Origin: Lentisphaerota bacterium
Lineage (GTDB): Bacteria > Verrucomicrobiota > Kiritimatiellia > RFP12 > JAAYNR01
Reading direction: 5' to 3'
Assembly (NCBI GenBank): GCA_016873675.1
Contig: VGWG01000020.1
Location: 1 to 33,553, forward strand
Length of the DNA: 33,553 nt
Below the pieces are notes generated by a model. The model saw only the letters and a list, made by a program, of their open reading frames with translations. It did not search any database and was not told where the DNA came from. Made by a program: the position numbers and the translations under genes. This document shows positions 921-33,461 of this stretch, piece after piece (position 1 is the first letter of the stretch; every line of letters begins with the position of its first letter).

Positions 921-1040
921 CATTTCAGCTTTCAGCATTTCAGCATTTCAGCTTTCAGCTTTCAGCATTTCAGCGTTTCAGCTTTTCTCTTCAGCTTTCA
1001 GCATTTCAGCATTTCAGCATTTCAGCTTTTCTCCCCAGCT
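921..1040. repeat. Tandem 7/8-nt repeat (TTTCAGC / ATTTCAGC)
   Basis: About fourteen head-to-tail units fill the space between gpmI and the upstream pyrophosphorylase gene. Most are either TTTCAGC (7 nt) or [A/G]TTTCAGC (8 nt); two longer degenerate units read TTTTCTCTTCAGC and TTTTCTCCCCAGC. On the coding (minus) strand the units read GCTGAAA and GCTGAAAT. The array carries the stop codon and last seven codons of the pyrophosphorylase, and ends about 9 nt before the gpmI ribosome binding site. There are no spacers, so it is not a CRISPR array. Confidence 0.9.
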
Positions 1041-2364
1041 CTTCCGCGTCCAGCGCATACGCCGGATCGATCTCCAGCGGCAGCGCCGACCCGCCCGCTG
1101 CGGCGGGCGCGAGGGTCACGCCCGCCGCCGCGAACCAGCGCGCCCATTTGGCCTGCAGGTCGCGGCGGCAGGTTTCCGGCGAGTCGGGGCCGGAGGCATT
1201 TTTCACCGGTGAAAATTCATCGGCGCGATCAAAGGCCAAATTGACCACCCGCTTCGCGTCGGGCAGCACGTCGAAGATGAATTTCTCGAACTTGTAACCG
1301 GTGTTGGCCGTCGGCTTGACCACCGTGCCGTCATCGGCGCAGAACGGGATCTTCTTGTGCGCCAGATGCAGGGGCAGGGGACGGAGCGCCTCCTGTCTGA
1401 GGAAGGGGAGGCTGAAAACATGGATCGCCACGCTGCCATAGTTGAAGACCAGCCCGCCGTCGGGCGTGCGCCGATGCTTCTGCTCGTCGGTCAGCTCGGA
1501 GTATTCGACCATCTCGCAGCGGCCGTCGCGCATCACCACCACACCCAGACCCTCCTGCGGCTCGCGCTTGGCGCAGACCTTGATCGAAATGTCGGCGTGT
1601 TCCAGCAGGTGGAGCCCGATGAACGCCGGATCGGCGACCTCCACCAGCGGATTGTCGACCTGGAAATAAAAGACCGTGGTCAGGCCGCGGCGTTCCATGT
1701 CGGCCAGCCCGCCGCTCGCCGCCAGCGCCGAAAGCGTGCCGCCGTGGCCGTCGGGGCTCATGAAGATGTGGCCGGGCGCATCCAAAATGATCCGGCCGGA
1801 GGCGTCGAGCGCGGGCCACATCCCCTGCATGAAGAAAAAGACATCCTCGCGCGCCAGGCCGAAAAAGCCCTGCTCCTCGAAATGCGCGCGCGTCGCCGCG
1901 TCGTTGGTGTCGCTCGTCAGGATGTAGAAGGGCACCCGCACGCCGTGCCGCCGCGACAGCGCGAGCACCTTGCGCGCGTGATAGTGGAAGAGCGTCGCGC
2001 CGCTCGCCGGCCCGATCACATACGCGCCCTTCGGGCCGTCGTAGCCGAGGCGCGAGCCTTGTCCGCCCGCCACCAGCAGCACGCCGACGCGCCCCGCGCG
2101 CAGCTCGGCCTCGCCCCGCGCCACGGCCGCCGCCCGCGCCGCCGTGTCGAGCGTCACCACGTCGGCCGGCTGCGGCGCGCCCGCCGCCCCCGCGCCGCCG
2201 CCCGCCGCCAGCATCTCCCGCATCCGGGCGATGCTCTCAAAATCGAGCGTGGCGATCTGCGCGAGCAGCGCCTCGCGCGCCGCCCCATCCAGCCGATCCC
2301 AGAAGCGGAGCACATGCCCCTGCCCGTGATGATGCAAAACCTCTGTGGCGTGTTCAAACGTCAT
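1006..2364 (-). CDS. UDPGP-family UDP-sugar pyrophosphorylase (UAP/AGX-like)
   Basis: Transfers a uridylyl group from UTP to a sugar 1-phosphate, giving UDP-GlcNAc or UDP-glucose for the cell envelope and sugar metabolism. The 452-residue protein carries the nucleotide-binding signature VAGGQGSRLGYDGPKG at about residues 98-113. It also has FYILTSDTN, FFFMQGMWPA and SPDGHGGTLSAL, which follow the pattern of eukaryotic-type UDP-N-acetylglucosamine pyrophosphorylases more than bacterial GalU or GlmU. Substrate choice (GlcNAc-1-P or Glc-1-P) cannot be settled from sequence alone. AGGAGAG precedes the ATG at 2364; prfB ends 40 bp upstream. The C-terminal KAEMLKC is encoded entirely by the tandem repeat, so the end of the protein is not conserved sequence. 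Confidence 0.88.
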   Translation of the reverse strand: MTFEHATEVLHHHGQGHVLRFWDRLDGAAREALLAQIATLDFESIARMREMLAAGGGAGAAGAPQPADVVTLDTAARAAAVARGEAELRAGRVGVLLVAGGQGSRLGYDGPKGAYVIGPASGATLFHYHARKVLALSRRHGVRVPFYILTSDTNDAATRAHFEEQGFFGLAREDVFFFMQGMWPALDASGRIILDAPGHIFMSPDGHGGTLSALAASGGLADMERRGLTTVFYFQVDNPLVEVADPAFIGLHLLEHADISIKVCAKREPQEGLGVVVMRDGRCEMVEYSELTDEQKHRRTPDGGLVFNYGSVAIHVFSLPFLRQEALRPLPLHLAHKKIPFCADDGTVVKPTANTGYKFEKFIFDVLPDAKRVVNLAFDRADEFSPVKNASGPDSPETCRRDLQAKWARWFAAAGVTLAPAAAGGSALPLEIDPAYALDAEELGRKAEMLKC

Positions 2365-3694: not shown

Positions 3695-3768
3695 GAGGCT
3701 CTTGCAAAACCCCCCGGACGCTGCGCCTGACGGCTTGCGTCCGAGAGGTTTTGTAAGATTTTTTGCTG
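3695..3768 (+). repeat. GAGGCTCTTGCAAAA hairpin repeat, copy 1 (left of the transposase)
   Basis: Starts GAGGCTCTTGCAAAACC and returns as GGTTTTGTAAG, so it is an imperfect palindrome around a core containing CGCCTGACGGCTTGCG. It is the inverted partner of the copy at 5241-5315. Confidence 0.8.
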
Positions 3769-3904
3769 AAGCGGCGGGTCCGACGCTAAACAAACGGACT
3801 CGACAGGGCCATCGTTGCGGGTTTCGGCCGTTTTCGGGCAGGCGCCGCCGTCCTCGCCCTGTCGCGGGCGGGTTTGCCGAGGTCGGAGTCCGACTCGATC
3901 AGGT

Positions 3905-5011
3905 TCAGGCGAGCATTCTGAGCATCTGCTCGGCGGCGATGACCAGCAAGCCGAAGGCCAGGTGTGCCGCCACCTTGACCGGGCCGCGCACGCGGACATG
4001 CCGTCCACCGTGTTCCTCATGCAGATGGCTGTTGACCCGCTCGACGGCCGTGCGCTCGTTGTAGCGCCGCGACTCTGCCGGGGAAAACTCGATCTTTTCT
4101 CCCCGCCGCGCATTGTGGTCAATGATGGCCACGTGCCCCAGCCGCGCGGACATCTCGCGAATTTCCTTGGCGTCGTACGCGGCGTCGGCCAAGTCATAGA
4201 GGTTGATGATGCGTTCGGCGGTCATCTGCGCCAAGGGAATGGCGACCTGGCTGTCATGCAGGCTGGCGGAGGTGAGGATGAAGCTGACCGGGATATCGCC
4301 GTCGATCACGTCCAGATGGGCCTTGTACCCACGCCAGCATTCGGTCTTGTCTTGGCTGTTTTTCTTGCAGCCCCAGTCGCAAACTGTTGGCAAATCGGCC
4401 AGATTCGCCTTCAAATCGCGTTCGAGTTGACGTTGCATCCGGGTGGGTTCCGGTGGCTGAGCGGGAGGTTCGTCCTTGCGGCGGCGGCCGCGTTTGAGAT
4501 CGGCATTCGCCTTCGGCTTGGCCGCAGCCTTCTCGCGGGCGTGAATCGCGGTGGCGTCGCGGCTGACGTGTCCGGCGAGCTTCTCACCATAGTGCGTCTT
4601 GAGCATGGCCTCGTGAATCTGCTGCGGCCGGTCGTCGCGGGCGAAGGCGTCGAACGCGCGCGAAAAGGTTGCCTCAGAGGGCACCTCGCCAAGTGACTCC
4701 CAGCCGCACAACCGACGCAGGGCCGGACGGTGGCGGATGGCGTCGATCAGGTCGCGGGTGGTGGCGAAGTTCCACACGGCTTTGGCGATGTACGCCTTGC
4801 ACAGCGTTAACCGATCACTGGGCGGACAGCCGTTGCCGCACCATCGGTAGGTCGCGATGTGATCTTGCGGAGCGCACAGTTCGCAGACGGCCACGAACTG
4901 CCGATGCTTGTCGTCGAGCGCTCCGATTTCGTCCTCCAGCACTGGGAAGAGCCATAACTGGATGCTGCTCCACAACTGGCCCATTGGGTTTTGCTGTCGC
5001 GTGTTCTGCAT
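3905..5011 (-). CDS. IS4/IS5-superfamily DDE transposase
   Basis: Catalyses cut-and-paste movement of the surrounding element. From the ATG at 5011 the protein is 368 residues; this start is chosen because AAAGGAG sits 8 nt upstream, whereas a longer frame needs a TTG at 5095. The N-terminal part (SEATFSRAFDAFARD) resembles the DUF772-type domain of IS5/IS1182 transposases. The likely catalytic triad is Asp152 (SRDATAIHA), Asp276 (LADAAYD) and Glu324 (YNERTAVERVNS), with a basic, Pro-rich insertion after the first Asp. The triad and length look intact, so it may be active. The exact IS family assignment needs a database comparison. Confidence 0.85.
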   Translation of the reverse strand: MQNTRQQNPMGQLWSSIQLWLFPVLEDEIGALDDKHRQFVAVCELCAPQDHIATYRWCGNGCPPSDRLTLCKAYIAKAVWNFATTRDLIDAIRHRPALRRLCGWESLGEVPSEATFSRAFDAFARDDRPQQIHEAMLKTHYGEKLAGHVSRDATAIHAREKAAAKPKANADLKRGRRRKDEPPAQPPEPTRMQRQLERDLKANLADLPTVCDWGCKKNSQDKTECWRGYKAHLDVIDGDIPVSFILTSASLHDSQVAIPLAQMTAERIINLYDLADAAYDAKEIREMSARLGHVAIIDHNARRGEKIEFSPAESRRYNERTAVERVNSHLHEEHGGRHVRVRGPVKVAAHLAFGLLVIAAEQMLRMLA

Positions 5012-5240
5012 GCGCAAGTCTCCTTTCTGCGTGTCCACACCCGTTCTTTTGAGTGACGGATAAGTTATAACATATTGCGCAGCAAAAAGATACAACTATT
5101 TTAATAAAAAATGGGGGGGGGTAGACAAATGCCTTGGAATGTGCGACACTACTCTTGTTCGTTGTGGGCGTGGTATGCTGCCGCGCAGAAAACGATGGGG
5201 CATTGGTTGGAAAGTCAGACGAGTCCACGTTGGGCGACGC
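5012..5240. other. Non-coding part of the insertion sequence
   Basis: This stretch upstream of the transposase is AT-rich near 5050-5110 (on the minus strand it contains TGTTATAAC, a possible extended -10) and includes a run of nine Gs at 5113-5121. Short overlapping frames here look like chance frames. I see no gene. Confidence 0.5.
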
Positions 5241-5315
5241 GGCTCTTCAACTTACAAAACGCCCCGCGACGCAAGCCGTCAGGCGCAGCGTTGCGGGGGG
5301 TTTTGCAAGAGCCTC
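5241..5315 (-). repeat. GAGGCTCTTGCAAAA hairpin repeat, copy 2 (right of the transposase)
   Basis: Read on the minus strand it begins GAGGCTCTTGCAAAACC and ends GTTTTGTAAGTTGAAGAGCC, so GGCTCTT and AAGAGCC can pair and the whole 75 bp can fold. It is the inverted partner of the copy at 3695-3768 and lies 110 bp upstream of fabD. Confidence 0.85.
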
Positions 5316-21734: not shown

Positions 21735-21792
21735 GAGGCTCTTGCAAACACCGCGCAAAGATGCGCCTGACGGCTGGCTTCGCGCGGCGGTG
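21735..21792 (+). repeat. GAGGCTCTTGCAAAA hairpin repeat, copy 3
   Basis: Begins GAGGCTCTTGCAAA, contains TGCGCCTGACGGCTGGC as in the copies around the transposase, and can fold through CACCGCGC / GCGCGGCGGTG. It is a solo, diverged copy directly upstream of the phospholipase D-family gene. Confidence 0.75.
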
Positions 21793-21972
21793 AAGTTCGA
21801 TCCCGTCATTCCGGGCGCGACGGTCTCCACCACCCCAGCAATTCTAATCTTTGTTGTTGTGAGAAAAACGAAAAGTTGAAAGCTGATCAACGCCAACAAA
21901 GACGCTGGCGCCTCGGGTCTGAAATCTGAACCCTCTGTCTGCACACATCGAAAAGGATGCAAGCACTTCGGT
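21793..21972. other. Intergenic remainder between the phospholipase D gene and the helical-repeat gene
   Basis: AT-richer, with a short GTTGAAAGCTGA motif recalling the 7/8-nt repeat at 921-1040. A 76-codon frame on the minus strand covers most of it and runs into the hairpin repeat; I regard it as chance. Confidence 0.4.
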
Positions 21973-28601: not shown

Positions 28602-31600
28602 ATGGCAGAAAAAATCATGGTGGACGGCAACCAGGTAGCCGCCGAAGTCGCTTTCGCATGCAGCGAGGTTGCCGCGATCTATCCCATCACCCCGTCGTCC
28701 AACATGGGCGAGTGGGCCGATGAATGGGCCTCCAAGGGGTTGAAGAACATCTGGGGTACCGTGCCTCAGGTGGTCGAGTTGCAGTCCGAGGGCGGCGCCG
28801 TCGGCGCCGTGCATGGAGCGCTCACAACCGGTGCCCTGACCACGACGTTTACCGCTTCGCAAGGGTTGCTGCTGATGATTCCCAATATGTACAAGATTGC
28901 CGGCGAGCTGACGCCGACCGTCTTCCACGTCAGTGCGCGCGCCCTCGCCGCGCAGGGCCTCTCGATCTTTGGTGACCACAGCGACATCATGGCCTGCCGC
29001 CAGACCGGCTTTGCGATGCTGTGCGCGAACAGCGTCCAGGAAGTCATGGACATGGCCACCATCGCCCATGCCGCGACGCTCGAAACTCGCATTCCCTTCG
29101 TCCATTTCTTTGATGGCTTCCGCACCTCCCACGAAGTGCAGAAGATTGACGCCGTCAGTTCCGACACCATCCGGGCCATGATTGACGACACCCTTGTCGC
29201 TGCGCATCGCGCCCGCGCTCTGAGCCCCGAGAAACCCACGATCCGCGGCACCGCGCAGAATCCCGATGTCTATTTCCAGGGTCGTGAGACCGTTGCCCCG
29301 TACTACACGGCGACTCCCGGCATCGTCCAGAAGACCATGGACAAGTTTGCCACACTGACTGGCCGCCAGTACAAGCTTTTCGACTACGTGGGCGCGCCCG
29401 ACGCCGAACATGTCGTCGTCATCATGGGTTCCGGCGCCGAAGCCGTCCATGAGACCGTCGAAGAACTGGTCCGGAAGGGTGAGAAACTGGGCGTCATCAA
29501 GGTGCGCCTCTACCGCCCGTTCGACGCCAAAGGCTTCGCCTGCGCGATTCCCAAGTCGGTCAAGACCCTCACCGTCCTCGACCGCTGCAAGGAGCCCGGT
29601 TCCATCGGTGAGCCGCTCTATGTCGACATCCGCACCGCCCTCGGCGAGATTATGCAGTATAAGCTCGCCGACATCCGGTCTTGGATCCCGACCTATGGCG
29701 GGCGCTATGGCCTCGGATCGAAGGAGTTCACCCCCGCGATGGTCAAGGCGGTCTTTGACAACGCCCGGAGTGCCGCGCCGATGAACCACTTCTCCGTCGG
29801 CATTCACGACGATCTCACCGGTCTCAGCCTCCCGATCCCGGCCGACTTCACCCTGTCGGACGAAGGCCGCAAGGAGTGCATGTTCTACGGTCTCGGGGCC
29901 GACGGCACCGTCGGCGCGAACAAGAACTCGATCAAGATCATTGGCGAGGACACCGACAATTTCGCCCAGGGCTACTTCGTCTACGACTCGAAGAAGGCCG
30001 GCGCGATCACGGTCTCTCACCTCCGTTTCGGTCCGCATCTCATCCGCAGCACCTACCTCTGCACCAAGCCGGACTTCGTGGCCTGTCACAACTTCTCTTT
30101 TCTTGAGAAATACGACATGCTCGCCAACATCCGCACGGGCGGCACCTTCCTCCTCGCTTCGCCCTTCGAGGCGGACCAGGTGTGGGAGAACATCCCCGAT
30201 GAGGTGGCGCGGCAGATCATCGCCAAGAAGCTCAATTTCTACGTGGTCAACGCGCTCAAGCTCGATCATGAGCTGCATCTCGGTGGTCGAATCAATACGA
30301 TCATGCAGACCGCGTTCTTCAAGATCTCCGGAATTCTGCCTGCTGACGAGGCGATCGCCGCGCTCAAGAATGCCGCCAAGAAGACCTACGGGAAGAAGGG
30401 CGATACCGTCGTCAAGATGAACTGGGACGCCATAGACGCCGCCTCCGACGCAGTCAAGCGGGTGGCCTACCCGGCCCGCCCCGCCGGCAAGGTGAAGATG
30501 CCCAAGGTCGTCTCCGATAGCGCCCCTGCCTTTGTGAAGAGCGTGACCGCCGAGATCATGGCCCAGCGCGGCGATGCGCTCCCGGTCTCCAAGATGCCCG
30601 ATGACGGCGTTTGGCCCACCGCCACGACGCAGTGGGAGAAGCGCAACATCGCCACCGACATTCCCTCCTGGGATCCCGCCACCTGCATCCAGTGCATGCA
30701 GTGCTCGCTGGTCTGCCCGCACGCCTCGATTCGCGGCAAGGTCTATGATCCCGCCGTGCTCGCCAAGGCGCCGCCGACCTTCAAGTCGGCCGACGCCAAG
30801 GGCGTGGTCGGCAAAGGGTTCCCGGGCTTCAAGTACACCATCCAGATCGCCCCCGAGGACTGCACCGGCTGCGGTCTCTGCGTCCAGCGATGCCCCGCCA
30901 AGAACAAGGCCAACCCGGCTCTGAAGGCCATCAACCTTTCGCCGCAGATTCCGCTGCGCGCGGCGGAGGCGGCCAACTGGGAGTTCTTCCTCGGGCTTCC
31001 CGAGGCCGATTGCACCAAGATCGGCGCCACGACGATCCAGGGGAGCCAGCTCAAGCGCCCGCTCTTCGAGTTCTCCGGCGCCTGCGCCGGCTGCGGCGAG
31101 ACCCCCTACATCAAGCTGCTCACCCAGCTTGCAGGCGACCGCCTGCTGATCGGCAATGCGACGGGCTGCTCTTCGATCTACGGCGGCAATCTCCCCACCA
31201 CGCCCTATTGCCAGCGTGCGGATGGACGCGGCCCGGCGTGGTCGAACTCGCTCTTCGAGGACAATGCCGAGTTCGCCTTCGGCATGCGCCTCACCGCCGA
31301 CAAGCTCAATGTCTACGCGCGGGAGCTCATCGACCAGATGCTCGCCGCCGAGACCTGTTCCGCCGCCCTCAAAGCGGTGGCTCAGAAAATCAAGGGTACC
31401 GACCAGAAGGCCACCGAAGGCGTCGAGACCATGCGCGGCCTGGTTGCCGAGCTGAAGACGCTCATCGGCGATGGCGCCTGCTGCGACATTTGCAAGAACC
31501 TGCTCGGCGTGGCCGACTACTTGATTCGCAAATCGGTGTGGGCGGTCGGCGGCGATGGTTGGGCGTATGATATCGGCTACGGTGGACTGGACCACGTCCT

Positions 31601-32177
31601 CGCCACCGGCCGCAACGTCAAGATCCTCGTGCTCGACACCGAGGTCTATTCCAACACCGGCGGCCAAGCGTCCAAGTCCACGCCGCTCGGCGCGGTCGCC
31701 AAGTTCGCTGCGGCCGGCAAGCCGCAGATGAAGAAGAACCTCGGCATGATTTCGATGACGTACAAGAACATCTACGTCGCGCAGGTTAGCTTGGGTGCAA
31801 ACGCAGCGGCCACGGTCAAGGCGTTTGTCGAGGCCGAGGCTTACGACGGCCCGGCTATCATCATTGCCTATTCACACTGCATCGCGCATGGCATCGATAT
31901 GAGCCTCGGCTTGGAGAACCAGAAGCTTGCCGTTGAAACCGGCCACTTCCCGCTCTACCGCTATAACCCGGAGCTCTCCGCCGAGGGCAAGAACGCTTTG
32001 CAACTCGACAGCAAGGCGCCGACGCAGTCGTTCGCCGAGACCGCGCTTCAGGAGAACCGATTCAAGCAACTCCTGACGCTCAACCCGAATGCCCAGGCGA
32101 TGCTGGCCACGGCGGAGAAGAAGTTCCGGGAGAACTTCGAGATGCTGCAGGCCCTGGCCAACCTGCCGCGGTCCTAA
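28602..32177 (+). CDS. nifJ: Pyruvate:ferredoxin (flavodoxin) oxidoreductase
   Basis: Oxidatively decarboxylates pyruvate to acetyl-CoA and passes electrons to ferredoxin or flavodoxin; a hallmark of anaerobic metabolism. The single-chain 1191-residue form has all domains: N-terminal pyruvate-binding YPITPSSNMGEWADEW, the domain II/III region, two 4Fe-4S clusters (CIQCMQCSLVCPHA near 694 and CTGCGLCVQRCPAKN near 750), and the thiamine diphosphate domain starting FSGACAGCGETPYIKLL (about 824) with GDGWAYDIGYGGLDH (about 983). AGGAA precedes the ATG. It has no visible promoter of its own in the 32-bp space after the fba terminator, so some read-through or an unrecognised promoter is needed. Confidence 0.97.
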   Translation: MAEKIMVDGNQVAAEVAFACSEVAAIYPITPSSNMGEWADEWASKGLKNIWGTVPQVVELQSEGGAVGAVHGALTTGALTTTFTASQGLLLMIPNMYKIAGELTPTVFHVSARALAAQGLSIFGDHSDIMACRQTGFAMLCANSVQEVMDMATIAHAATLETRIPFVHFFDGFRTSHEVQKIDAVSSDTIRAMIDDTLVAAHRARALSPEKPTIRGTAQNPDVYFQGRETVAPYYTATPGIVQKTMDKFATLTGRQYKLFDYVGAPDAEHVVVIMGSGAEAVHETVEELVRKGEKLGVIKVRLYRPFDAKGFACAIPKSVKTLTVLDRCKEPGSIGEPLYVDIRTALGEIMQYKLADIRSWIPTYGGRYGLGSKEFTPAMVKAVFDNARSAAPMNHFSVGIHDDLTGLSLPIPADFTLSDEGRKECMFYGLGADGTVGANKNSIKIIGEDTDNFAQGYFVYDSKKAGAITVSHLRFGPHLIRSTYLCTKPDFVACHNFSFLEKYDMLANIRTGGTFLLASPFEADQVWENIPDEVARQIIAKKLNFYVVNALKLDHELHLGGRINTIMQTAFFKISGILPADEAIAALKNAAKKTYGKKGDTVVKMNWDAIDAASDAVKRVAYPARPAGKVKMPKVVSDSAPAFVKSVTAEIMAQRGDALPVSKMPDDGVWPTATTQWEKRNIATDIPSWDPATCIQCMQCSLVCPHASIRGKVYDPAVLAKAPPTFKSADAKGVVGKGFPGFKYTIQIAPEDCTGCGLCVQRCPAKNKANPALKAINLSPQIPLRAAEAANWEFFLGLPEADCTKIGATTIQGSQLKRPLFEFSGACAGCGETPYIKLLTQLAGDRLLIGNATGCSSIYGGNLPTTPYCQRADGRGPAWSNSLFEDNAEFAFGMRLTADKLNVYARELIDQMLAAETCSAALKAVAQKIKGTDQKATEGVETMRGLVAELKTLIGDGACCDICKNLLGVADYLIRKSVWAVGGDGWAYDIGYGGLDHVLATGRNVKILVLDTEVYSNTGGQASKSTPLGAVAKFAAAGKPQMKKNLGMISMTYKNIYVAQVSLGANAAATVKAFVEAEAYDGPAIIIAYSHCIAHGIDMSLGLENQKLAVETGHFPLYRYNPELSAEGKNALQLDSKAPTQSFAETALQENRFKQLLTLNPNAQAMLATAEKKFRENFEMLQALANLPRS

Positions 32178-32182
32178 GAAAA

Positions 32183-32283
32183 GAGGCTCTTGCAAAACCC
32201 ACCGTGGCACGGGCGTCCCGCCCGTGAAACACGGGCAAGATGGCCGTGCCGCGCCCGTACTCCCGGGGTTTTGCAAGAGCCTC
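32183..32283. mobile_element. 101-bp palindromic MITE-like element (hairpin repeat family, copy 4)
   Basis: Ends are a perfect 18-bp inverted repeat: GAGGCTCTTGCAAAACCC at 32183-32200 and its complement at 32266-32283. These are the same ends as the bracketed insertion sequence. The interior differs from the other copies: it holds the self-complementary CACGGGCG..CGCCCGTG and CACGGGCAAGATGGCCGTG blocks. AAA flanks it on both sides, compatible with a 3-bp duplication but uninformative in an A-rich context. It starts 6 bp after nifJ and ends 2 bp before the antiporter ribosome binding site, and as RNA would form a long hairpin. Confidence 0.85.
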
Positions 32284-32297
32284 AAAGGAATGACCCT

Positions 32298-33461
32298 ATG
32301 GCCGTAAGTATTGCCGAAATCATCTTGTTGTGCCTTATAGCCGATTGGTGTTTCCGGCGCATGCGCATTCCGGGTCTCGTCGGCATGTTGCTCGTGGGCG
32401 TTATTCTCGGACCATACGCGCTTGAGTTTCTCGATCCCGGCCTGCTTACAATCGGGCCGGATTTACGCCTGAGCGCCCTCATCGTGATCCTCCTGCGGGT
32501 TGGCTTTGAGTTAAGCCGTTCGACACTTCATAGGATCGGCGGCAGAGCTTTACTCTTGGCTTTTATTCCTGCCACCATTGAAGGCGCGGCCATCACCATC
32601 GCCGGGCCGTGGTTGCTGGGCTTAAGCTTGCTCGAATCGGCTGTTTTGGGATCGGTTCTTGCGGCTGTTTCTCCCGCCGTAGTTGTACCTTCCATGATTG
32701 AGTTCATGAAGGAACGCCGGGGCGCAACCAAAGAGATCCCCTCCATGATCATGGCCGCAGCATCGGTTGACGACGTGTACGTGATCGTCGCGCACACAGC
32801 CATCCTGGGAGTCTATGTCGGCCAACAAGTCAATTTGGCAACACAAATCGTCAGTGTGCCGCTTTCTTTGATTTTAGGAATTGCTGTGGGGATTGCCATC
32901 GGGAGCGTCCTGTACAAGTTGTTCGACCGATTCAACCCCCGGGCGACAAAGAGGGTTCTCATCGTCATTGCCTTGTCCATTCTTCTCGTTCGAATACAAC
33001 ACAGTTTATCAGGCGTTCTGCCGTTTGCCGGTCTGGTTTCCGCCATGGCCATCGGATTCATTATTTTGGAAAAACGGGAATATATGGCTCATGAACTCTC
33101 GGCCAAATTGGCGAAGACGTGGGTGTTTGCGGAAATCATACTGTTCTCGATGGTCGGCGCACAGGTGAACATTGGAATCGCATGGCGAGCGGGTTTGATG
33201 GGAGCAGCAATAATAGGTCTTGGGCTTCTGGCTCGCAGCATAGGTGTCGGCCTTTGTCTTATCGGTAGCCGCTTAAACATAGGGGAGAGGTGTTTTGTTG
33301 CGGTAGCCTACTCTCCGAAGGCCACCGTGCAAGCCGCCATTGGTTCTGCTCCGCTGCTAGCCATGCGTTCAGCAGGGATGGACACAGCCCCAGGGGAAAT
33401 GATCCTCGCGATTGCCGTATTGAGCATTTTTCGGCACTTCACGAGAATCTGTGGGTGGTAG
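32298..33461 (+). CDS. Cation/proton antiporter (monovalent cation:H+ antiporter superfamily)
   Basis: 387 residues, almost entirely membrane helices (about 11-12), for example IAEIILLCLIADWCF, LVGMLLVGVILGPYALEFL and LIVILLRVGFELS. The unwound-helix ion-binding Asp pair typical of CPA antiporters is at SVDDVYVIV (Asp158/Asp159), and RIPGLVGMLLVGVILGP is a classic N-terminal block. There is no C-terminal TrkA or CBS domain, so it is a transport core only. The start ATG at 32298 has AAAGGA upstream, immediately after the MITE. Base composition and codon use (many A/T third positions) are clearly less GC-rich than the surrounding genes, suggesting recent transfer. Confidence 0.88.
   Translation: MAVSIAEIILLCLIADWCFRRMRIPGLVGMLLVGVILGPYALEFLDPGLLTIGPDLRLSALIVILLRVGFELSRSTLHRIGGRALLLAFIPATIEGAAITIAGPWLLGLSLLESAVLGSVLAAVSPAVVVPSMIEFMKERRGATKEIPSMIMAAASVDDVYVIVAHTAILGVYVGQQVNLATQIVSVPLSLILGIAVGIAIGSVLYKLFDRFNPRATKRVLIVIALSILLVRIQHSLSGVLPFAGLVSAMAIGFIILEKREYMAHELSAKLAKTWVFAEIILFSMVGAQVNIGIAWRAGLMGAAIIGLGLLARSIGVGLCLIGSRLNIGERCFVAVAYSPKATVQAAIGSAPLLAMRSAGMDTAPGEMILAIAVLSIFRHFTRICGW

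What the first reader, a model, noticed from the sequence alone, without database searches (positions are those of the whole stretch)
32183..32283. Chimeric MITE with IS-like ends but an unrelated palindromic core, placed between nifJ and the antiporter
It has perfect 18-bp inverted ends identical to the insertion sequence ends, while its interior (CACGGGCG/CGCCCGTG, CACGGGCAAGATGGCCGTG) is unlike the other three copies. That suggests the ends can mobilise different cargo, possibly another repeat family. It also abuts the antiporter ribosome binding site and could act as the nifJ terminator or as a 5' structure controlling the antiporter.
Basis: partly seen in the sequence, partly recalled or inferred. 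Interest (0 to 1): 0.52.

Follow-up and report, generated by a model that had tools for sequence, protein, structure and literature searches.

The report
REP pair riding in insertion-sequence ends
A 101-base hairpin between two genes of an uncultured bacterium is a small jumping element that carries a pair of "REP" palindromes, a repeat normally linked to a different kind of transposase, between the ends of an ordinary insertion sequence, which suggests that such palindromes can change vehicles.

Summary
Window 32183-32283 is a 101-bp hairpin element with perfect 18-bp ends identical to those of the insertion sequence at 3695-5315. Its interior is a known kind of repeat: an inverted pair of GTGG-tagged REPs (a REPIN). 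Siblings in this genome and in related PVC-group genomes share one asymmetric layout, exact 4-bp target duplications (27 of 61) and a clean paralogous empty site. The same ends also carry a second REP pair, other hairpins, an IS deletion, or nothing but a loop. The REP core also occurs without the ends: 4 of 24 groups here, 13 of 49 sampled in two relatives. In one relative it flanks a REP-associated tyrosine transposase gene on both sides; another has 237 REPs and a matching DDE transposase, but no REP-type transposase was detected. Best reading: a REP pair was captured into an IS end-hairpin and is now spread by a DDE transposase. The nifJ terminator is not supported, and the antiporter ribosome site stays unpaired. 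REPs inside MITEs have precedents (Coxiella QMITE2; Anabaena GTAG-15 dimers), so this is a new variant of a known kind.

The parts
32183..32283 (+). the whole 101-bp element (class A: IS ends around a REP pair)
   Evidence: ends; fold; siblings
32183..32200 (+). left 18-bp end, identical to the IS ends
   Evidence: I10 and I19
32266..32283 (-). right 18-bp end
   Evidence: I19 and D13
32204..32226 (+). REP unit 1: GTGG tag plus palindrome
   Evidence: same 23-mer elsewhere
32230..32252 (-). REP unit 2, inverted, with private mutations (tag GCGG, broken stem pair)
   Evidence: compare siblings
32180..32182 (+). AAA, left copy of a possible 3-bp target duplication (siblings mostly 4 bp)
   Evidence: sibling statistics
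32284..32286 (+). AAA, right copy of the possible target duplication; overlaps the ribosome-site sequence AAGGA at 32285-32289
28602..32177 (+). nifJ, pyruvate:ferredoxin (flavodoxin) oxidoreductase (neighbour)
   Evidence: TIGR02176 1787 bits
32298..33461 (+). sodium/hydrogen-exchanger-type antiporter (neighbour)
   Evidence: PF00999 132 bits
3695..5315 (-). autonomous IS with the same ends, presumed parent
3905..5095 (-). DDE transposase of that IS, 396 aa
   Evidence: DUF772 and DDE_Tnp_1 above cut-off
3695..3760 (+). left end hairpin of the IS: end, palindromic core, degenerate inverted end
5250..5315 (-). right end hairpin of the IS, same design
21735..21800 (+). solo, degraded end of the IS

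Best explanation
A miniature inverted-repeat element moved in trans by a DDE transposase of the kind encoded by the IS at 3695-5315. Its cargo is an inverted REP pair (REPIN), a repeat family that in one relative flanks REP-associated tyrosine transposase genes. Shown: shared ends, many copies, 4-bp duplications, empty sites, an asymmetric layout conserved across genomes, REPs outside the ends, and bare end hairpins with no cargo. Inferred: a REP pair entered, or replaced the core of, the hairpin that this IS uses as an end, and the DDE transposase then amplified the combination, so that REPs multiply without a cognate tyrosine transposase. At this locus it is most likely a near-neutral insertion between two genes.
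For: Ends identical to the IS; 9 distinct class A sequences among 30 paired elements in this genome; exact 4-bp duplications in 27 of 61 class A elements against 0.67 expected; empty sites for a class A element (L347 vs L185, 3 of 56 mismatches), a class B and two class C elements; same layout in 7 public assemblies and a fixed arm/REP pairing in 76 arms with one exception; GTGG tag in 210 of 235 REP copies and covarying stem pairs; REP groups without ends, 4 of 24 here and 13 of 49 in two relatives; REPs on both sides of a tyrosine transposase gene in G072; G012 with 237 REP hits, a DDE transposase 83% identical with exact ends, and 0 Y1 transposase hits; stand-alone bare hairpins.
Against: No close DDE transposase was found in G072, G001 or G008, which are rich in the ends. 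The IS copy in the window has no duplication. This copy has only AAA/AAA and no empty site was found for it. Some end-less REPs may be remnants of chimeras: several sit in decayed ends, and free arrays in G012 carry a linker like that of the chimera. The direction (REP captured by hairpin) is inferred, not observed. All relatives are draft assemblies, where repeats and IS copies are easily lost.
Confidence: 0.78

Rival explanations
1. An ordinary MITE whose two internal palindromes only resemble REPs. It never was a separate repeat; all end-less copies are truncated MITEs, as proposed for the small QMITE2 copies of Coxiella.
For: Most groups have one or both ends: 20 of 24 here, 36 of 49 sampled in G012 and G072; 10 of the 11 genomes with REP hits also have the ends, the exception being G018 with one single-mismatch hit; fixed asymmetric layout.
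Against: GTGG tag with inverted pairs is the REP format; a row of five REPs without ends; REPs next to two genes best matched by the REP-associated tyrosine transposase model in G072; a second REP type in the same ends.
Confidence: 0.25
2. The REP pair is moved by a tyrosine transposase that likes to insert into the loops of IS end hairpins; the outer ends are only the target, not the vehicle.
For: Bare hairpins exist as possible targets; REP dimers in longer palindromes are reported elsewhere (PMC3733652 section 7); Y1 transposases occur in own genome, G001, G008 and G072.
Against: 4-bp duplications and empty sites lie outside the IS ends, so the whole unit moves; one fixed arm layout points to a single capture rather than repeated targeting; G012 has many copies and no Y1 hit. 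It may still describe the first capture.
Confidence: 0.12
3. At this locus the hairpin has been kept for a role in expression: terminator or processing site for nifJ, or a 5' control structure of the antiporter.
For: Exact placement between stop codon and ribosome site, and a very stable fold.
Against: No terminator-like site or T-run; ribosome site unpaired in the fold; no Rfam match above its cut-off; second REP is mutated rather than conserved; antiporter relatives in G040, G063 and G078 are not next to nifJ within the fetched flank.
Confidence: 0.12

Closest known systems
QMITE2 of Coxiella burnetii (PMC5896051: abstract passage and section 8 read)
   Same: A MITE with terminal inverted repeats and direct repeats that contains a GTAG-type REP; truncated copies look like plain REPs; often next to gene 3' ends.
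   Different: QMITE2 is about 190 bp with 7-11 bp direct repeats, and the passages I read name no parent IS. Here there are 18-bp ends of an identified IS, 4-bp duplications, REP pairs, several other cargos and bare hairpins.
REP dimers inside long palindromes: GTAG-15 of Anabaena variabilis, CGTC-1 of Halothiobacillus neapolitanus (PMC3733652 section 7 read)
   Same: Inverted REP pairs sitting regularly inside a longer palindrome.
   Different: There the palindromes were not tied to an IS in the text read, and empty palindromes were not found. Here the outer palindrome is an IS end pair and bare versions exist.
REPIN / RAYT system (PMC3116915 and PMC2817692, passages)
   Same: Tagged palindromes in inverted pairs; in G072 they lie beside REP-associated tyrosine transposase genes.
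   Different: Here most pairs are enclosed in DDE IS ends with target duplications, and one REP-rich relative gave no tyrosine transposase hit.
IS elements that insert into REPs (ISPpu9, ISPsy8 and others; PMC1525189, abstract)
   Same: A physical association of IS and REP.
   Different: The nesting is reversed: here the REP lies inside the IS ends.
IS1182 / IS5 family transposases (NCBIfam)
   Same: Best matches of the 396-aa transposase; DUF772 and DDE_Tnp_1 domains.
   Different: Scores far below the family cut-offs; ends with internal hairpins.

Membership tests
MITE (IS-derived, DDE-mobilised) | terminal inverted repeats shared with an autonomous IS | tested here: met
   18 of 18 bp identical to the IS at 3695-5315; an 83% identical transposase in G012 has the same ends
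MITE (IS-derived, DDE-mobilised) | target-site duplication | tested here: met
   exact 4 bp in 27 of 61 class A elements, 0.67 expected; this copy itself only 3 bp AAA/AAA
MITE (IS-derived, DDE-mobilised) | empty sites showing movement | tested here: met
   class A L347 vs L185 with one duplication copy; not available for the window copy
MITE (IS-derived, DDE-mobilised) | short, multicopy, no transposase gene | tested here: met
   101 bp; 9 distinct class A sequences in this genome
MITE (IS-derived, DDE-mobilised) | interior derived from the parent IS by deletion | tested here: not met
   interior unrelated to the IS ends; not required in the wider use of the word
MITE (IS-derived, DDE-mobilised) | movement in trans by the IS transposase | not testable with these tools
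   needs a transposition assay
REP / REPIN (GTAG superfamily), interior only | GTAG-type tag followed by a palindrome | tested here: met
   GTGG in 210 of 235 copies, GTAG in 2; GTGG is a reported variant
REP / REPIN (GTAG superfamily), interior only | inverted pairs forming hairpins | tested here: met
   covarying stem pairs
REP / REPIN (GTAG superfamily), interior only | association with a RAYT gene | tested here: inconclusive
   met at two G072 loci (L359, L363; NCBIfam 34 and 48 bits, below the cut-off of 80); no REP near the 5 own-genome hits; no Y1 hit in G012
REP / REPIN (GTAG superfamily), interior only | existence independent of other repeats | tested here: inconclusive
   end-less groups 4 of 24 (own, two of them probably one locus) and 13 of 49 (G012, G072), but the majority are enclosed
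IS1182 family (parent transposase) | NCBIfam equivalog cut-off | tested here: not met
   96.2 bits against 270
IS5 family (parent transposase) | NCBIfam equivalog cut-off | tested here: not met
   63.9 bits against 140
QMITE2 | QMITE2 sequence | not tested
   sequence not fetched; duplications differ in length
intrinsic transcription terminator | GC-rich stem followed by a T-run | tested here: not met
   0 sites in 31900-32600 on either strand

The most novel reading that the evidence does not exclude
REP pairs can leave the tyrosine-transposase system. The end hairpins of a DDE insertion sequence act as cassettes in which REP pairs of more than one type are loaded, and the DDE transposase then keeps and spreads REP populations in genomes without a cognate tyrosine transposase. 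A second, unrelated pair of ends in the same genome that also encloses REP-like dimers would make this a recurrent route of REP dispersal rather than one accident.
Probability: 0.35. Interest if true: 0.7.

Novelty: new variant of a known kind. Interest (0 to 1): 0.5.

Why it matters
How REPs are disseminated is still described as poorly understood (abstract of PMC8266576 as listed). Here the two halves of a chimera, their separate existence, a parent IS and cargo-free end hairpins can all be seen in one genome and its relatives, so an alternative route, DDE-driven spread of REPs, can be tested directly in a laboratory strain. It also shows that a repeat's wrapper and its core should be counted apart when bacterial palindromes are classified.

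Tried and rejected
Intrinsic terminator and promoter: none found. Known RNA family: only two eukaryotic microRNA models far below their cut-offs, taken as chance. Sequestration of the ribosome site: not seen in the fold. Strict empty site at nifJ/antiporter: antiporter relatives pass the threshold in 4 of 95 genomes including this one, and the other three have no nifJ within the fetched flank. Two candidate empty sites, L193 (26 of 56 mismatches) and L021 (19 of 56), did not hold up and were dropped. Many of the 58 spanning rows are self-hits of short hairpins and were not counted. Derivation of the REP interior from the IS end: rejected, since the IS ends hold a different palindrome and the 10 relative-transposase loci hold no REP at up to 2 mismatches. 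Cognate tyrosine transposase in the own genome: 5 loci, no such REP at up to 4 mismatches.

Limits of counts: of the 18 bare hairpins, 13 are the ends of longer class C elements. The 5 stand-alone ones are L044, L110, L125, L129 and L150; L044 and L125 have 4-bp duplications, L150 has 3 bp, L110 and L129 none. The stretches (25 of G012, 20 of G072) were taken from the part of the listing that was shown, not at random. The listings were cut by the tool; counts are whole, places are not. One search is an exact-pattern scan and misses diverged copies. Literature searches for a REP pair inside IS ends returned the precedents named and nothing closer; only openly licensed PubMed Central papers are searchable here, so this is no proof of absence in print.

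Full report
What is there. Window 32183-32283 is a 101-bp sequence with perfect 18-bp inverted ends. It lies 5 bp behind the nifJ stop codon and directly before the AAGGA of a sodium/hydrogen-exchanger-type antiporter. The ends are identical to those of the insertion sequence at 3695-5315, which encodes a 396-aa DDE transposase (DUF772 and DDE_Tnp_1 above the Pfam cut-offs). Its best NCBIfam matches, IS1182 (96 bits) and IS5 (64 bits), are far below their cut-offs, so I assign no family. The whole element folds into one long stem (z = -9.2).

The interior. Between the ends lie two units in inverted orientation: 32204-32226, GTGG followed by CACGGGC-GTCCC-GCCCGTG, and a mutated partner at 32230-32252. 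A tag of the GTAG type followed by a short palindrome, in inverted pairs, is the published format of REPs and REPINs (PMC3733652 section 5; PMC3116915 and PMC2817692, passages). Over 235 distinct places from all loci held, the tag is GTGG in 210, and the two variable stem pairs stay Watson-Crick in 226 and 228 of 235 (shuffle maxima 137 and 140). Three combinations of the two pairs occur, so at least two paired changes are implied; the counts are of copies, not of independent events.

Copies in the own genome. The 101-bp query gives 98 matches. The end gives 154 matches at up to three mismatches, with one in the reversed control. Pairing ends in the loci then held gave 30 distinct element sequences: 9 with this REP pair (100-101 bp), 5 with another REP pair of the form GTGGTGCAGGCG (121-122 bp), 14 long hairpins of 147-196 bp with TCAG-rich arms, one 350-bp deletion of the IS, and one 857-bp pair. 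Stand-alone bare hairpins of 35-43 bp (an end, a loop and an inverted end) exist at five places, three of them with 3-4 bp duplications. The IS's own two ends are hairpins of the same design, an end followed by a palindromic core and a degenerate inverted end, and so are the ends of the long hairpin class. In two close relatives of the IS (G012, G064) only the right end shows this hairpin.

Transposition. Of 61 distinct class A elements from all sources, 27 have an exact 4-bp duplication (0.67 expected from shuffled flanks), 5 have 3 bp and 5 have 5 bp. For the second REP class it is 4 of 7 with 4 bp. Paralogous empty sites with a single copy of the duplication were found for a class A element (L347 versus L185, 3 of 56 mismatches), a class B element (L172 versus L140, 3 of 56; both lie in a repetitive GATTAC tract) and two class C elements (1 and 4 of 56). 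Two other candidates failed. The copy in the finding has only AAA on both sides, and no empty site could be found for it.

Beyond the own genome. One scan of the genome-contig collection for end plus REP found 37 loci in 7 assemblies: two labelled Lentisphaerae, one Verrucomicrobia, one Kiritimatiellae, one PVC group, one uncultured bacterium and one Woesearchaeota contig, which may be mis-binned. In 32 of 37 a right end with up to 4 mismatches followed; four of these are 133-134 bp long with a third REP. In 76 distinct arms, short arms (20-22 nt) join the GTC type of REP with a single exception, and long arms (28-33 nt) always join the ATC type. This is one asymmetric element, most simply with a single origin, now spread over genera. 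Matching contig lengths identify G012 with JAAYLN01 and G072 with DUPH01.

Are the two parts separate? In 95 genomes (relatives plus the own one) the REP pattern hits 11 and the end pattern 24. Counts differ widely: G012 237 REPs and 123 ends, G072 367 and 91, own 36 and 92, G001 2 and 53, G008 3 and 33. In the own genome 15 of 24 REP groups have both ends, 5 have one and 4 have none; two of those four (C83, C90) are probably one locus at contig ends. In the stretches taken from G012 it is 10, 9 and 8 of 27 groups, and from G072 13, 4 and 5 of 22. A row of five REPs plus one inverted lies without ends in G012 (L308). In G072 a gene best matched by the REP-associated tyrosine transposase model (34 bits, below its cut-off of 80; Pfam Y1 just above cut-off; interrupted by one stop codon) has such REPs on both sides without IS ends (L359). 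A second gene (48 bits; Pfam match below cut-off) has a pair about 14 bp behind its stop (L363). No such REP was found near the 5 hits in the own genome at up to 4 mismatches, nor near the 11 loci of G001 and G008 apart from one 4-mismatch match in L364; the other three G072 loci also had none. G012 gave no Y1 transposase hit, while its DDE transposase is 83% identical to the window's and has the same ends.

How it works. Shown: a mobile unit bounded by IS ends and carrying a REP pair, in many copies, with duplications and empty sites. Inferred: the DDE transposase acts in trans; the REP pair was captured into an end hairpin; this lets REPs multiply where no cognate tyrosine transposase exists. 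Against it: no close transposase was found in G072, G001 or G008, the IS copy in the window has no duplication, and some end-less REPs may be remnants of chimeras.

Local effect. There is no terminator-like site on either strand. In the fold the ribosome-binding sequence stays unpaired. The gene pair is not seen in the three other genomes with antiporter relatives, within the fetched flanks. A near-neutral insertion between two genes is the simplest reading; RNA data would be needed to say more.

Known or new. REPs inside MITEs are known: QMITE2 of Coxiella contains a GTAG REP, and its truncated copies look like REPs (PMC5896051, abstract passage and section 8). REP dimers inside longer palindromes are noted in Anabaena and Halothiobacillus, where empty palindromes were not found (PMC3733652 section 7). 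A 2024 review repeats the QMITE2 case (PMC10969869, passages). What is added here is an identified parent IS, cargo-free end hairpins, two REP types and other cargo in the same ends, a relative with REP-flanked tyrosine transposase genes, and a REP-rich relative in which none was found. I therefore rate it a new variant of a known kind.

Noticed in passing
L147 382-523, L166 212-353, L168 357-498 (own genome C64, C162, C58): A second, unrelated end type (GGGCGCATCCCCGTTTCG, 18 matches in this genome) encloses a different REP-like dimer (GGGAGCGCGGGCG...) in three 142-bp elements, and other cargo elsewhere.
   Followed up: partly
L308 1670-1862 (G012 C70): Row of five direct REPs at 34-bp spacing plus one inverted REP, without IS ends.
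   Followed up: no
L062 46-105 and L063 (own genome C83:46, C90:81): REP doublet that joins one class A and one class B-like REP, apparently in frame inside a reading frame; both contigs end there.
   Followed up: no
L331-L334 (own genome C99, C105, C107, C155): Shortened version of about 70 bp with a single hybrid REP between the ends, lying beside another repeat that contains GGGCAAACGCATCTAAAT.
   Followed up: no
L179 167, 924, 995, 1027 (own genome C106): A weak Y1 transposase hit is surrounded by a different GTAG-tagged palindrome, GTAGGGCAGCGGCGTCCCGCCGCGCCG: a possible second REP system.
   Followed up: no
L190, L191, L210, L214: 133-134 bp chimeras with three REPs between the same ends.
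   Followed up: partly
window 930-1048: Tandem TTTCAGCA repeats; a similar stretch flanks the class C empty site in L139/L140.
   Followed up: no
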